Below, one piece after another: positions 5,630-63,098 of a DNA stretch of 64,000 nt (position 1 is the stretch's first letter; every line of letters starts with the position of its first letter). The translations under genes and the position numbers were made by a program. The stretch spans positions 1 to 64,000 of the forward strand of contig JAITSL010000050.1 of NCBI GenBank assembly GCA_031287855.1. Reading direction: 5' to 3'. This stretch comes from Candidatus Endomicrobiellum roisinitermitis. Lineage in GTDB: Bacteria; Elusimicrobiota; Endomicrobiia; Endomicrobiales; Endomicrobiaceae. Under the pieces are notes generated by a model. It was not told where the DNA came from. It made no database searches and saw only the letters and a list, made by a program, of their open reading frames with translations.

Positions 5630-6004
5630 TGGTCTAGTTTAGTATCTTAACGGAGTTACCTCAAAGAGCAAGCTTATGAGCAATAAACATTTAATATTCC
5701 AAAAGGGCTGTGTCTAAAAACCCTAATGCATATAGTTGCTGTGAATTTTTTGACAATGCAAGGCAAAAAACGCAGGGCTTATAGTGATAAACACAAGTTT
5801 TTTAACGCAGCAGTGTAGAAAAAGGCACAGTAAGGATACGCACTAAGGTTTTTAGATAGACCCCATTCAGTGTTTGAAGCAAAATACATATAAGTCTTTC
5901 TTAGCTTATTATTTTGCAAGTTTGCTAATTTGATTAAATGTTTGTTGCGATTGCTCTGTGAGTGAGACACTCTAGTAACGTAGATAAGATTCTAAACTAG
6001 ACCA
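5630..6004. mobile_element. MITE-like element copy 2 (outer element with nested inner element)
   Basis: TGGTCTAGTTTAGTATCTTAACGGAG... / ...CTCTAGTAACGTAGATAAGATTCTAAACTAGACCA; inner element about 5705-5863 with GGG(C)TGTGTCTAAAAACCCTAATGC-like inverted ends. Confidence 0.85.
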
Positions 6005-25496: not shown

Positions 25497-25553
25497 CAAT
25501 TGTTGTGCCTGACAGTAATCTTTTGTTGCTCAGATGGTTCGGTTCGATTAGTT

Positions 25554-25774
25554 TGACTTAGTTTAGAACCTTACCTATGTTACTAGAGTGATCCACTAAA
25601 GTAATCACAAGTAAACACTTAATACAAATTAGCAAACTTGCTAAATGCTAAGACAAGAAATACTTAAATGTATTTAGCTTCACTTCATACAATGCTAATT
25701 TTGTATTAACATTAAATGTTTATTGCTCATATACAGCTCTTTAAGATAACTTCGCTAAGATTCTAAACTAGACC
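25554..25774. mobile_element. MITE-like element copy 3 (inverted; lacks the inner element)
   Basis: TTGACTTAGTTTAGAACCTTACCTATGTTACTAGAG... / ...TTCGCTAAGATTCTAAACTAGACC; shares CTCATA..., ATTAGCAAACTTGC and TTAAATGTTTATTGCTCATA with other copies. Confidence 0.75.
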
Positions 25775-38585: not shown

Positions 38586-38910
38586 GGTTGGTGTGGTTTA
38601 GAGCTTTATCTACGTTACTAGAGCAATCGCAAGAAACATTTAATCAAATTAGCAAACTTGCAAAATGATAAGACAACAAAGACTTACTATAACGCATATT
38701 CTTACTATGCCATTTTCTACACTGCTGCGTTAAAAAACTTGTGTTTATGGTACGATAAACCCTGTGTTTTTTGCCTTGCATTGTCAAAAAACTCACAGCA
38801 ATTATAAGCATTAGGGTTTTTAGACAGACCCCTTTTGAAATATTAAATGTTTATTGCTCATAAGTCGCTCTTTGAGGTAACTCCGTTAAGGTTCTAAACT
38901 ACACCAACCA
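38586..38910. mobile_element. MITE-like element copy 4 (one inner end lost)
   Basis: GGTTGGTGTGGTTTAGAGCTTTATCTACGTTACTAGAG... / ...CTCCGTTAAGGTTCTAAACTACACCAACC; inner right end ...TTAGGGTTTTTAGACAGACCCC. Confidence 0.8.
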
Positions 38911-39232: not shown

Positions 39233-40349
39233 TTATCTTTTTAAATATTCTTGGATATCTGATTGGGCTATGTAAGTTTTTATTGTACTAAGAACATGTT
39301 TAGCTCTATTTAAATTTAAACCTACTTTTTCTGCAACATTAATTATGTCTGGTTCATTTGGTTTTTTGCCTTTGCCATTAATTGTAGTGGTATGCTCTCC
39401 ACTCATTCCTTCTGCATATACAAGATCATAAGCAGGGGACACAATCCAACTGTTATTATCGTACAAAAATGAAAAATTTTTAGAATGGTCATCCCGATTA
39501 TGAGCAAAAACATTAAAGCACATAATTCTAAACATTTTTTCCACTTCTGCATAGCTTTTTGTTAATTTTAAAGTTGCATTGAGCAAATCAACATAATCAA
39601 GTGAAGGATAACGGTGTGAAGATTCAAGCAGTGCACTTACTGAGAGCACAAAAATTCTTTCTCCATTTGGTTTACGGTCAACCCGGGTTACACCAAAGTA
39701 TTTATTTTTAAAGAGGCGTGTTTTAGGCATATTTATACCGCATTGCTTTGCTAGTATAGAATACTCATATTCTTGCTTTCCCATGTTTTTAGGATCGCTC
39801 AACGCACAAAATTTGATAAGTCAATTTTCATTATCTATTCTCAACAAAACTTTGGGCCGTGCACCACCTGAGGCTCCTCCTAGTTTTAAAAGATCAGCAA
39901 GGGCGTTTTCTGTACATGCGTTCTCGTTTAACATATTATGCGCTTCTTCTGCTAGTTTATTTATATCATTTGTTGTTACAGATGTTGTAGAAATAATAGT
40001 TTCAGATTTATATTCTAAGGCTCCCATTCCACTGGCCCCTACAATTGCAAGTCTGTCTAAAATCGATACTTGTGCAGGGGTAAATCCCTTTTTTTACAAG
40101 CATACGATCTATAAGCATTCTGCCCCAACCGTCAGGCAAGCTATCATTAAATACACCAAAGTTTCCATCAAAAGGGTCTGGATTTGCTATAAAGACTTTT
40201 TTCTCAAGAGGAAGTTTAAAAGGAGATATAGAAAAACCATCAGACAACCAAGATTTATCATATTCAAAAGCGCAGCAATGCATGTCTGTCATAGCAACAC
40301 GCCCGACTTTCTTTCCATGATAAAACACATTTATAACTTTATTTTGCAT
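39233..40349 (-). pseudogene. HipA-like Ser/Thr kinase toxin pseudogene
   Basis: N-term VFYHGKKVGRVAM...FGVFNDSLPDGWGRMLIDRMLVKKG; frameshift in homopolymer about 40090; in-frame TGA about 39819 (NEN*LIKF); C-term MCFNVFAHNRDDHSKNFSFLYD. Confidence 0.9.
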
Positions 40350-40599
40350 TTATAATTTCATCTAAGCTTTGATAATTTATACGTGTAAAAAGTTGATTAA
40401 AGTCTGCTCCATGGTCAAGAACAACAGCAATACGCAAAAGAGAAGACAATGATATCTCTCCACTTCGCTCAAAGCGTTTTATAGATCCAAGAGATACCTG
40501 TGATTTACATGACAGCATAAGTTGTGACAGTTTAATTTCTTTGCGTCGTTTGCGAACACGATTTGCTAAGTTTTGTTTAATAGTTAGTATATTATCCAT
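40339..40599 (-). CDS. HipB-like HTH antitoxin
   Basis: LANRVRKRRKEIKLSQLMLSCKSQVSLGSIKRFERSGEISLSSLLRIAVVL; overlaps hipA. Confidence 0.85.
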   Translation of the reverse strand: MDNILTIKQNLANRVRKRRKEIKLSQLMLSCKSQVSLGSIKRFERSGEISLSSLLRIAVVLDHGADFNQLFTRINYQSLDEIINAK

Positions 40600-40730: not shown

Positions 40731-42068
40731 TTAACTGTTAAAAACTGCTTCCCATATATTACTATCTTCCATACATAGGTAAATAATGGCCTTTGATTTT
40801 TTAGATTTAATATATTGTAGTAAATATTTGTAAATTTCAATTCTTAAAATGCTGGCATACCTTAACTTAAAATCTTTATCCAGAAGTAGTTCTCCATTAA
40901 GAATATCAGTTTGAGGAAAACGATTTTCAATAACTGTTTTTTGTGTTGTAGGCATTCTAAGTGTTCCAATACTTATCCATTTAATACTAGTGTTTGGTAC
41001 AATATCAAAAATCATATCAATTGTTTCTTTATATCCTTGTTTCCAACTATCATAATAAATTACTGGGTCAAAATGAAATGCCGTGCTAAAACCAGCTAGT
41101 GCACACTTTTTTGCAGCAAATAACCTTTCTTGAATTAGGGGTGTTTTAAACTCGTTTTCAACAGTCATTTTTTTTGAGTTTACACTCCAAGCTATAACAA
41201 TGTTTTCTCTACCACCACAAGATAAAAGAGTGTGTATATTAGTACTTTTTGTTTTAAATTCAAAAAAAATATTTTTCTTGTGTTTAAAATAGTTGATAAT
41301 TTTTTTAGAAAAGTTTGTAATGTCATCAAAAATTAAAGAGTCTGTAAACTCCCCGCTCCCAATTCGGTTATAATTAAAAAAGCCTTTTGTAGATGCTATT
41401 ATTTTGTCGTTAGCTAAATAATCATCTATGTTGTAAGGGATAATAATTCCGTACACATTTTGGTATCTTTGTAAAAAACAGTAAGTGCAGTCATAAATAC
41501 AGCCCATACCTAAATTCATAATAGAGTATCCACAGCTTACTACGTTTTGTGAACAAGGACATTTCTTAAAAAAATCGTGCTTTTCTTTTACTAAAAGTAA
41601 ATTGTCACATCTATTATTATAGTCTGTTAATGTAAAAGAGTTTTCTTTTGTAAAATCTTTTAAACAACTTATTTCTTTAAAAGTAGCATTTTTAAATAAA
41701 GCCTTTGTTTTTGTAAACAGTTCGTTGTTAGTTGCATCTTTTTCATAGTAAATATTTTTTGGATAAAACTTTTTTTGTAAAACGTCTGCTTTCTTGTACA
41801 GATCAATTTCGTATTTTGGCAAATAATATGCATTTAAAGAGTTTTTGTGAAAAGTTTTAGGATATCTGCGTTGTAAAAGTGCGTTTTTAATTTTTTGGTA
41901 ATTTGTTGGTTCTAAAAGGCTTAAAATCTTGTTAAATGATACTTTTTCAATTTTAGAAATTTCGTTAATAAGTCTAAATATTTCTCTAGATTTATTTGTT
42001 CCAAAATTTGGGAATCGTTTTTGGAATACTTCTAATAATTTTAAAGTACTTGTACTATTGTTCATCAC
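40731..42068 (-). CDS. Spore photoproduct lyase-like radical SAM protein
   Basis: GMGCIYDCTYCFLQRYQN; SPL-type layout with GSGEFTDSL. Confidence 0.88.
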   Translation of the reverse strand: MMNNSTSTLKLLEVFQKRFPNFGTNKSREIFRLINEISKIEKVSFNKILSLLEPTNYQKIKNALLQRRYPKTFHKNSLNAYYLPKYEIDLYKKADVLQKKFYPKNIYYEKDATNNELFTKTKALFKNATFKEISCLKDFTKENSFTLTDYNNRCDNLLLVKEKHDFFKKCPCSQNVVSCGYSIMNLGMGCIYDCTYCFLQRYQNVYGIIIPYNIDDYLANDKIIASTKGFFNYNRIGSGEFTDSLIFDDITNFSKKIINYFKHKKNIFFEFKTKSTNIHTLLSCGGRENIVIAWSVNSKKMTVENEFKTPLIQERLFAAKKCALAGFSTAFHFDPVIYYDSWKQGYKETIDMIFDIVPNTSIKWISIGTLRMPTTQKTVIENRFPQTDILNGELLLDKDFKLRYASILRIEIYKYLLQYIKSKKSKAIIYLCMEDSNIWEAVFNS

Positions 42069-42088
42069 AAAACCTTAAAATCATTTCT
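42047..42088. repeat. 42-bp perfect direct repeat, copy A
   Basis: TACTTGTACTATTGTTCATCACAAAACCTTAAAATCATTTCT. Confidence 0.97.
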
Positions 42089-42278
42089 TTTTGTTTTTTA
42101 TTTTTTTTATTTTTATGCTACCATCTGGCATTTCATAGATAATTCTACCGTTTCTATAAAAAACATTTGGTAACCCTAAACGATGATTTTCTTCTTGCGC
42201 TTTAGCAACAGCTCTATTATAAATTCTTGTTATATCGTCTATCAATTTGTAATCATCAACAGTCATTTTTGACTCCAT
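42081..42278 (-). CDS. Small protein paired with zeta-like kinase (candidate antitoxin)
   Basis: MESKMTVDDYKLIDDITRIYNRAVAKAQEENHRLGLPNVFYRNGRIIYEMPDGSIKIKK; overlaps kinase ORF. Confidence 0.75.
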   Translation of the reverse strand: MESKMTVDDYKLIDDITRIYNRAVAKAQEENHRLGLPNVFYRNGRIIYEMPDGSIKIKKIKNKKK

Positions 42279-42838
42279 TTTTCTAATTGGTTATATTTCT
42301 GCTCATCCAATATTTCTATTTCCTTGTTTACATACTTTGCAACTACAACACCATTTTCCATATTGTAATATAAAATCCAGGCGTTTACTATTTTTTGATA
42401 TATATTTATGAAATTTACTATACTTCTATAAAATCTTCTATTGACATCTTCATCAGGGACAAAATGTCCTCCTTTATTTACTCTATCTTTGATTCTTTCT
42501 ATACATATATCAGGCGTATCTACAAAAGTGTAAATTAATATAACTTTGTATCTTAGTTTTTTAGCTTGTTTAATAATTTTAATAAGAAATTTTCCTGATA
42601 GAGTAGATTCAATGACAATACTAGAGCCTTTATTTAGTAACATTTCTAGATTTTTAAGAACTTCTTTGCCCGCTTCTATTCTTATTTGTTGTAAACTTTC
42701 AGAACTTATATTTTTTGCTGTTTCATCTGCGTTAAGAAAAAACAACTCTTTGTATTTTTTCAAAAATTCTCTAGAAACGGTAGTTTTACCAACCCCATTT
42801 GCGCCTGCAAGAATAAAAAACAATTTTTGTTTTTTCAT
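42263..42838 (-). CDS. Zeta-toxin-like/COG4185-type P-loop kinase
   Basis: FFILAGANGVGKTTVSREFLKKY, FLNADETAK, SIVIESTLSGKFL, RRFYRSIVNF. Confidence 0.88.
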   Translation of the reverse strand: MKKQKLFFILAGANGVGKTTVSREFLKKYKELFFLNADETAKNISSESLQQIRIEAGKEVLKNLEMLLNKGSSIVIESTLSGKFLIKIIKQAKKLRYKVILIYTFVDTPDICIERIKDRVNKGGHFVPDEDVNRRFYRSIVNFINIYQKIVNAWILYYNMENGVVVAKYVNKEIEILDEQKYNQLEKWSQK

Positions 42839-42967
42839 TTAACTTTTAACCAAAAAACTCCACATTAGTTTTTGATATTTGCATTCTATCATATTATTTT
42901 ACCTTACATAAATGTTGTTGTAGAGCTTTTCTCATAGTCTTGAAAGGTTATAAACAGTGTAAATTAA

Positions 42968-43009
42968 TACTTGTACTATTGTTCATCACAAAACCTTAAA
43001 ATCATTTCT
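42968..43009. repeat. 42-bp perfect direct repeat, copy B
   Basis: Identical to 42047-42088. Confidence 0.97.
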
Positions 43010-43656
43010 GCTAACTTTTTTCTTGAGTTAGACACTTTTTGTTTTATAGAATTTTCCTTCAAAAAAATGGCAGCATTTGTTTTTACAATGTCTGAAACAT
43101 ACATTAAACAAATTGCGTTACATCCTATATTACTAGAGGCTGACAAAATTATTGACGATTCCATGTCTATAGCAGAAATTTCTTTTTCTTTAAACCAATC
43201 TAAAAATTTTGCTTCTAGGTATAAAGAGCTAACACAAGCACTGTTGGTTTTTATTAAGTTTTTATGTATATTTTTTTTGTAAAAACAATTTAACAGATTT
43301 GTAGATGATCTATAATAATCAACTTGATTTTTGCAATTTAACATAGTAGAAAAACTTTCTAAGTTGTAAGCTTTATCTATTATAACTAAATCCCCATAGG
43401 TAACTTTACTATAGCCTCCACAACTACCAAAAACAAAAATATTTTCACAAGGAGAACCTTTTAAATATAAAATAGCATCTCCTGAAAGAAAATTATTTTT
43501 TAAAGCTATAATAGTTGCAGGTTTTATATTAGTAGATTTGACAAAAAGTCCATTTGAAAGTTCTCTAGAGAAAAGTGAAGTATCAAAATTTTGACATAGT
43601 ATACAGTTCTTTTTTATATTTTTTTTGTCAATTCCAAAAAAACTTTTAAAGTTCAT
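42976..43656 (-). CDS. Phosphorylase-superfamily nucleosidase (MTA/SAH- or futalosine-nucleosidase-like)
   Basis: VFGSCGGYSKVTYGDLVII, ISAIDMESSIILSAS. Confidence 0.75.
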   Translation of the reverse strand: MNFKSFFGIDKKNIKKNCILCQNFDTSLFSRELSNGLFVKSTNIKPATIIALKNNFLSGDAILYLKGSPCENIFVFGSCGGYSKVTYGDLVIIDKAYNLESFSTMLNCKNQVDYYRSSTNLLNCFYKKNIHKNLIKTNSACVSSLYLEAKFLDWFKEKEISAIDMESSIILSASSNIGCNAICLMYVSDIVKTNAAIFLKENSIKQKVSNSRKKLAEMILRFCDEQ

Positions 43657-61802: not shown

Positions 61803-63098
61803 TTATACTTCTATACATTCTTTACCTTTTACTGCTCCTATTGCCTCTTCTACTCCCCTACCTGCTATAAATCCTATCCCCTGTCCTACAAGCACTATCC
61901 CTGCACTTGCTACCTCATTTATCACTTGTGCTTGTGGTATCAGTCTCGAATTTTTTAGCACTAATGCCAGCACATTAGGGTTTTTTTCCACCATTTTGTA
62001 CTCATATACAACAAGCCCTTTATACAAGTTGAGAGAGTTCACTATGCTAACTATTCCCTGCGACTCTATTAGAGTTACTGTGTCTCCCTCTTTTGCCTCT
62101 CCTTCTAGTTTCACTTCAACTTTTGAGCTCCATAAATTTACACCGTCTACTACTTGTAGCACTGCTGGCGCATTCACAGTTACTTTCTCAAAATTATAGT
62201 GCTCAAAGTTTTCTACTCCTTTTAATACTACTGGGTTTTCTGTTTCCAAATTCAATGTGTTTCCTGTAAATACTTTTGCTGCCTCATTTGTTGTAACATG
62301 TCCTCCATATATTACCGTATTACTTGAAAATTTTGGGGCGCCACTAATTTTTACTGTATTGCCAACTGCTTCTCCTTTCTCAGATTTGCCACCATAAACA
62401 TTTGCCAAAAACTCTCCTCCACTAATTATTACTTTATTATTATTTGCATTTACTAAACTCTTGCCACCCATCACGTTACCTTTAATAGTTCCACTGGAAA
62501 CATTCAACGTGTTACTTATCGCATCGCCATCACCATATCCCCCGAACGCATCTTTATTAATTGTTCCTCCTGTCATCTCCAAAATGTTGTTTAGCACTAT
62601 TCCCTTATTTGACTTTCCTCCATATGCTTTGCCTACAATATTTCCATTTGTTATCGTTAACTTGTTCGTTAGCGCATTAGTGTCACCATATCCCCCGAAC
62701 GCATCGTTGTTAATTATTCCTCCTGTCATCTCCAAAATATTACCTTGCACTATTCCCTTATTTGACTTTCCTCCATATGCTTCTCCTGCAATATTCCCAT
62801 TTGTTATCGTTACCTTGTTACTTATCACCTCACCATAACCCACAGACATCGCTCCGAATACATCATTCTTAACTTCTGCTCCACCCTGAATAGTTACTAT
62901 ATTATTAGAAATGTATTTTACTACAGGGTATCCAGTAAGGATAGGAGTGCCATCTGGATCTGTTCCGTTTCCATAAACAGCATGATTAACCACTCCGCCA
63001 TTTATTACTATCTCTTGAGCCATAATAGAATAACTACATATATTCAAAATCACGCACGACATTAGTAATAATTTTACTGCTCTATATTTTTTTATCAT
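61803..63098 (-). CDS. Autotransporter-passenger-like repetitive surface protein without a beta-barrel
   Basis: Signal peptide MIKKYRAVKLLLMSCVILNICSYSIMAQ; tandem (T)ITNGNI.G.AYGGKSNKGIV..NILEMTGG.IN.DAFGGYGD repeats. Confidence 0.8.
   Translation of the reverse strand: MIKKYRAVKLLLMSCVILNICSYSIMAQEIVINGGVVNHAVYGNGTDPDGTPILTGYPVVKYISNNIVTIQGGAEVKNDVFGAMSVGYGEVISNKVTITNGNIAGEAYGGKSNKGIVQGNILEMTGGIINNDAFGGYGDTNALTNKLTITNGNIVGKAYGGKSNKGIVLNNILEMTGGTINKDAFGGYGDGDAISNTLNVSSGTIKGNVMGGKSLVNANNNKVIISGGEFLANVYGGKSEKGEAVGNTVKISGAPKFSSNTVIYGGHVTTNEAAKVFTGNTLNLETENPVVLKGVENFEHYNFEKVTVNAPAVLQVVDGVNLWSSKVEVKLEGEAKEGDTVTLIESQGIVSIVNSLNLYKGLVVYEYKMVEKNPNVLALVLKNSRLIPQAQVINEVASAGIVLVGQGIGFIAGRGVEEAIGAVKGKECIEV
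62527..62830. repeat. Two tandem ~153-bp repeat units inside the surface protein gene
   Basis: CCATATCCCCCGAACGCATC...TCCTCCTGTCATCTCCAAAAT...TATTCCCTTATTTGACTTTCCTCCATATGCTT occurs twice, near-identical. Confidence 0.9.

What the first reader, a model, noticed from the sequence alone, without database searches (positions are those of the whole stretch)
42047..43009. Zeta-kinase cassette bounded by a 42-bp perfect direct repeat inserted at an overlapping gene junction
TACTTGTACTATTGTTCATCACAAAACCTTAAAATCATTTCT is identical at 42047-42088 and 42968-43009. It spans the end of the nucleosidase gene (...EMILRFCDEQ*) and the start of the SPL-like radical SAM gene (MNNSTST), which overlap as TGATGAACAATAG. 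The ancestral state was probably a translationally overlapping pair. The roughly 880-bp cassette (zeta-like P-loop kinase plus small partner) sits between two copies of that junction, so both neighbours stay intact; the small partner's stop codon lies inside the repeat. This suggests a scarless, site-specific or homology-mediated integration of a toxin-antitoxin-like unit with no visible transposase or integrase.
Basis: partly seen in the sequence, partly recalled or inferred. Interest (0 to 1): 0.72.

Follow-up and report, generated by a model that had tools for sequence, protein, structure and literature searches.

The report
Zeta-kinase pair inserted with gene-end duplication
A small foreign two-gene unit, which looks like a toxin kinase with its partner, has recently landed between two overlapping bacterial genes and duplicated 42 bases of their junction so that both still work; similar units in unrelated bacteria show the same kind of gene-end duplication, which points to a transposase-free way for such selfish genes to spread.

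Summary
Two same-genus relatives, about 95-96% identical, carry the empty site with one 42-bp copy. More distant relatives also have the two genes adjacent without the insert, so the insertion is derived. The kinase model matches AvrRxo1, PezT and zeta toxins; the partner is conserved across phyla but has no known fold. Of 138 related kinase units, 20 have similarity between their flanks (E<1e-7) against 13 of 466 control placements. Several are duplicated gene ends: gyrA, rplA, guaB, gatB, a hypE-like gene, and porB in a sister genome. In gyrA and gatB the two copies differ as two functional alleles would, pointing to recombination with a related donor rather than plain target duplication; the window's perfect copies cannot decide. 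No transposase, integrase, terminal inverted repeat or conserved cassette end was found. Best reading: integrase-independent acquisition of a TA-like unit, like the 'insertion with long target duplication' known for restriction-modification genes. I did not find its recurrence for zeta units, with allelic gene ends, described. Toxicity is untested.

The parts
42976..43656 (-). upstream host gene: phosphorylase-superfamily nucleosidase; its last 34 bases lie in repeat copy A
   Evidence: PF01048 E=1.2e-11; intact ORF
42968..43009 (-). repeat copy A: end of the nucleosidase gene plus the first 19 bases of the SPL-like gene
   Evidence: single copy in relatives
42839..42967 (-). 129 bp of insert upstream of the kinase; no related sequence found in own genome or fetched loci; one weak promoter-like match (42924-42896)
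42263..42838 (-). zeta-type P-loop kinase, 191 aa (GANGVGKTT Walker A)
   Evidence: PF06414 E=9.6e-10; model pLDDT 94.5; Foldseek top hits AvrRxo1-ORF1, PezT, zeta
42081..42278 (-). small partner, 65 aa, overlaps the kinase 3' end; conserved downstream of kinase homologues; stop codon supplied by repeat copy B
   Evidence: model helix + 3 strands, pLDDT 89, no PDB fold match
42047..42088 (-). repeat copy B: carries the likely Shine-Dalgarno (AAGG) and start of the SPL-like gene
40731..42065 (-). downstream host gene: SPL-like radical SAM protein
   Evidence: PF20903 E=1.1e-23; intact ORF

Best explanation
A horizontally acquired two-gene unit (zeta-type kinase plus small partner, probably toxin and antitoxin) entered the overlapping nucleosidase/SPL junction in one event after this lineage split from its close relatives. 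Entry needed no transposase or integrase of its own. An incoming DNA piece was joined to the chromosome by homologous or microhomology-assisted recombination, most likely a single crossover of a circularised fragment, or homology-facilitated illegitimate recombination or template switching that re-copied the junction, so the junction now stands on both sides of the insert. Duplication is what made the insertion viable: the genes overlap and the downstream start signals lie inside the upstream gene, so at least about 22 bp (AAGG to TAG) had to be duplicated to keep both genes whole. Co-directional placement keeps the unit in the operon; if it is a TA pair, addiction would hold it although the 42-bp repeat could delete it. 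Shown: the insertion, its polarity, the duplication, the conserved pair, the predicted kinase fold, recurrence. Inferred: the recombination route, toxicity, addiction.
For: Empty site with one 42-bp copy in two close relatives, and adjacent genes without the insert in more distant ones. A second, decayed kinase unit in sister genome G030 follows porB and is followed by a decayed second copy of the porB 3' end (36 bp, 83%); porB in G000 and G019 lacks the unit. Across bacteria 20/138 units have flanking similarity at E<1e-7 versus 13/466 offset placements in the same loci (Fisher p=1.7e-6); with at least 39 bp and 85% identity, counted by hand from the listed hits, 13 versus 1. Gene 3' ends duplicated: gyrA 195 bp, rplA 110 bp, guaB 58 bp, hypE-like 110 bp, gatB about 92 bp. 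The gyrA copies keep frame with different tail lengths, are each about 84-85% identical to the nearest relatives and 90% to each other; in gatB 8 of 10 differences lie in synonymous codons where 21% would be expected. No conserved cassette ends. An E. coli experiment found gene-end duplications of 109-950 bp from single crossover of circles carrying a gene end (PMC3240628).
Against: 42 bp is short for efficient RecA exchange, and the donor is unknown. The two copies here are identical and the same 42 bp is also identical in both relatives, so donor-derived and target-derived copies cannot be told apart. About 85% of related units show no flanking repeat at this sensitivity, so other routes or decay are common. 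A trans-acting integrase or transposase is not excluded. Flanking repeats are also seen around 10-18% of small variable segments in general, mostly under 30 bp (PMC2884548). Control placements within a locus are not independent, and thresholds were chosen after a first look at the data.
Confidence: 0.62

Rival explanations
1. True target duplication: the incoming unit was inserted through widely spaced nicks or replicative re-copying at the target, so both 42-bp copies come from the recipient itself (the original sense of insertion with long target duplication).
For: Perfect identity of the copies; abrupt ends at both sides; no need for a donor already carrying the junction.
Against: In gyrA and gatB loci the copies look like different functional alleles, which target duplication does not produce.
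Confidence: 0.25
2. Site-specific integration by an integrase or Cas1-like enzyme acting in trans, the 42 bp being an att-like core.
For: Many integrative elements enter gene 3' ends and carry a replacement end (general knowledge).
Against: No integrase in the insert; related units sit at unrelated genes; cassette homology stops at the coding regions; repeat lengths vary from 42 to 195 bp.
Confidence: 0.08
3. The unit is ancestral and was lost precisely in the relatives by recombination between the repeats.
For: Repeats of this kind can mediate deletion (PMC2884548).
Against: Two close relatives and more distant ones lack it; the repeat is made of host gene sequence and itself needs an insertion to explain it.
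Confidence: 0.03
4. Assembly or binning artefact in a draft contig.
For: The genome is in 57 contigs; reads were not available.
Against: Both junctions lie inside a 77-kb contig with gap-free colinear flanks; a similar unit with a gene-end copy exists elsewhere in the genus.
Confidence: 0.02

Closest known systems
Insertion with long target duplication of restriction-modification genes (Nobusato et al. 2000, cited in PMC3874152, PMC1643837, PMC3031569)
   Same: An addictive-type gene unit with long, variable direct duplication of the target, found by comparing related genomes, without a transposase.
   Different: Here the cargo is a zeta-type kinase pair; repeats are often gene 3' ends, and in some loci the two copies look like different alleles. 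Among the 19 held papers that use the phrase I saw no zeta or other TA case, but I did not read them all and the primary paper is not held.
Single-crossover integration of circularised DNA and homology-facilitated illegitimate recombination (PMC3240628)
   Same: Foreign DNA linked to a gene end; single crossover of circles produced gene-end duplications of 109-950 bp.
   Different: Experimental plasmids with 1 kb of homology; HFIR itself usually gives deletions.
Zeta / PezT / AvrRxo1 toxin kinases
   Same: Fold of the predicted model, Walker A, Pfam Zeta_toxin.
   Different: Shorter (191 aa); the partner is downstream, 65 aa, and matched no solved structure at E<=0.001.
Small variable segments of bacterial genomes (PMC2884548)
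   Same: Small segments between conserved genes, 10-18% flanked by direct repeats.
   Different: Those repeats are mostly under 30 bp; here 42-195 bp and often gene ends.

Membership tests
Zeta-type toxin kinase (PF06414) | Zeta fold and P-loop | tested here: met
   PF06414 above its cutoff; Foldseek top hits AvrRxo1-ORF1, PezT, zeta, E 1e-9 to 1e-7; Walker A residues N14, G15, G17, K18 invariant in 54 sequences
Zeta-type toxin kinase (PF06414) | Kinase activity that poisons the cell | not testable with these tools
   needs an expression assay
epsilon/zeta, PezAT or AvrRxo1 system | Cognate antitoxin of the epsilon, PezA or AvrRxo1-ORF2 type | tested here: not met
   partner has no significant family and no PDB fold match at E<=0.001; it lies downstream of the kinase
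Toxin-antitoxin pair in general | Conserved adjacent small partner | tested here: met
   small downstream ORF with a shared pattern beside kinase homologues in several phyla; a crude motif filter found one in 92 of 148 loci
Toxin-antitoxin pair in general | Neutralisation of the toxin by the partner | not testable with these tools
   needs co-expression
Insertion with long target duplication | Empty site with one copy in a related genome | tested here: met
Insertion with long target duplication | Both copies derive from the recipient's own target | tested here: inconclusive
   copies identical to each other and to both relatives
Insertion sequence or DNA transposon | Transposase and terminal inverted repeats | tested here: not met
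   only two genes in the insert; no inverted repeat pairs the two ends of the insert
Integron cassette or integrative element | Integrase or conserved attachment site | tested here: not met
   no integrase ORF in the insert; no conserved cassette end against the nearest relative; an enzyme acting in trans was not tested

The most novel reading that the evidence does not exclude
Zeta-kinase/partner units form a class of transposase-free mobile units that spread between species by travelling with the 3' end of a conserved housekeeping gene, which serves as the homology arm; the recipient's own gene end is displaced downstream and addiction fixes the event.
Probability: 0.25. Interest if true: 0.75.

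Novelty: new variant of a known kind. Interest (0 to 1): 0.5.

Why it matters
How small selfish gene pairs without transposases reach new chromosomal sites is poorly explained. A young, clean insertion with its empty sites, together with parallel cases at essential genes in which the two gene-end copies look like different alleles, makes a recombination-based route testable, and would link the spread of toxin-antitoxin-like genes to the long-known behaviour of restriction-modification genes.

Tried and rejected
In the 77-kb contig compared with G030 and G022, outside tandem repeats, the kinase insert was the only gap over 100 bp with an overlap of more than 3 bp in the relative; the other large indels I inspected looked like decay. 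The 29-bp flanking repeat in L033 contains a hairpin and may be a terminator or dispersed element; not counted as a gene-end case. L078, L081, L095 and L109 repeats look like intergenic repeats rather than gene ends, although they are in the count of 20. Viral and phage collections gave few, distant kinase relatives; plasmids 502 records, all below 60% identity. Comparing gatB and gyrA copies with relatives did not show which copy is the donor's. No source for the 129-bp upstream stretch was found in 77 family genomes. VakA (PADLOC hit) could not be traced in the literature. Organism identity was not established.

Full report
Observation. The repeat is real and exact, far beyond chance, and a search of the window's own assembly with the 1.1-kb stretch that holds both copies found only this place. 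Read on the coding (minus) strand the order is nucleosidase, copy A, 129 bp, kinase, partner, copy B, SPL-like gene. The 42 bp hold the last 34 bases of the nucleosidase gene, stop included, and the first 19 bases of the SPL-like gene; the two genes overlap by 11 bases.

Insertion. Relatives of the same genus were searched with the SPL-like protein. G030 and G022 have both genes overlapping with a single 42-bp junction; the alignment to the window breaks exactly at the repeat, with 879 bp extra in the window and a 42-bp overlap in the relative. Flanks are about 94-96% identical over long stretches, while all 42 bases are unchanged. A more distant relative (G006) also has the genes adjacent without the insert, and so does G026 by spacing. 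Empty is therefore the ancestral state.

Why a duplication. The genes overlap, and the likely Shine-Dalgarno sequence of the SPL-like gene (AAGG, read by eye) lies inside the nucleosidase gene. An insertion that keeps both genes whole must duplicate at least the stretch from AAGG to the nucleosidase stop, 22 bp by the sequence. So survival selects for a duplication here; its mere presence does not prove a special enzyme. The partner's last codons and stop lie in duplicated nucleosidase sequence, which suggests an unspecific fragment end rather than a defined cassette end. The partner's stop now stands 15 bases before the SPL-like start codon, so the order can still work as an operon (inference).

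Cargo. The kinase matches Pfam Zeta_toxin; its model matches AvrRxo1-ORF1, PezT and zeta in the PDB. By sequence profile the only PDB match below E=1e-5 was Pnkp1, so the substrate is open. The partner has no significant family or solved-fold match, but a recognisable relative stands directly downstream of kinase homologues in several phyla. A TA pair is the natural reading; nothing here tests toxicity.

Recurrence. Kinase relatives were collected from named genomes, viral contigs and the window's phylum (at E<=0.001, weak matches included, 76 of 190 good genomes have one), with larger stretches fetched. Comparing 400 bp before with 900 bp after each unit, 20 of 138 have a match at E<1e-7 against 13 of 466 shifted placements in the same loci; a first run with 700 bp after gave 14 of 86 against 5 of 314 at that cutoff, counted from its list. 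The control hits are mostly low-identity repeats. Among the unit hits are gene 3' ends with Pfam-confirmed genes: gyrA (L210), rplA (L245), guaB (L127), gatB (L132), an AIRS-family hypE-like gene (L096) and a DUF2924 gene (L244), and an unnamed ORF (L112); L113 duplicates the 5' end of the downstream gene. In the window's own genus, G030 has a decayed unit after porB with a decayed porB end behind it, while porB of G000 and G019 has none.

Alleles. In L210 the two gyrA ends are 90% identical, keep frame despite different tail lengths, and stand about equally far from sister species; the proximal copy is followed by a terminator-like hairpin, as in several relatives. In L132 most gatB differences are synonymous; in L112 14 of 21 fall at third positions; L127 has too few to judge. 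The L096 count included unaligned bases and is not used. A dead gene fragment would not be expected to drift this way, so these copies probably come from two functional genes, which favours recombination with related DNA. This does not carry over automatically to the window, where all copies are identical.

Known background. Long target duplication is described for restriction-modification genes (PMC3874152, PMC1643837, PMC3031569). Furuta et al. 2010 is not held, and the primary paper of 2000 was seen only as a citation. Single crossover of circles gave gene-end duplications in E. coli (PMC3240628). Small variable segments are flanked by repeats in 10-18% of cases, mostly under 30 bp (PMC2884548), so part of the signal is generic; the lengths here are larger.

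Verdict. Confirmed insertion; new cargo and allelic gene ends for a known kind of event. Limits: thresholds for the enrichment were set after a first look, placements within one locus are not independent, several of the 20 hits are intergenic repeats rather than gene ends, and the 13-versus-1 strict count was made by reading the hit lists.

Noticed in passing
window 25549-25774 (also 5630-6003, 38839-38905 and elsewhere): A dispersed repeat of about 226 bp; a search of the window's own assembly lists 53 matching pieces, some of them parts of one copy. Nature unknown.
   Followed up: partly
window 39233-40599: A hipBA-type toxin-antitoxin locus next to the SPL-like gene with hipA split into two ORFs (HipA N-terminal and C-terminal domains), so probably broken.
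   Followed up: no
window 62476-62781: Tandem 153-bp repeat; the matching region of G030 holds more copies.
   Followed up: no
L210:104-1114: A DUF1016/YhcG nuclease gene follows directly after the distal gyrA end in G174; gyrA ends may be a recurrent landing place.
   Followed up: no
L033 1217-1245 and 2184-2212: 29-bp flanking repeat TGAACAACTCGCACCACTGGTGCGAGAAA with an internal hairpin around another kinase unit.
   Followed up: no
contig C19 75497-76793 (L047 11497-12793): G030 lacks about 1.3 kb here with a 3-bp overlap, inside a gene that looks like serine dehydratase; looks like a deletion in G030.
   Followed up: no
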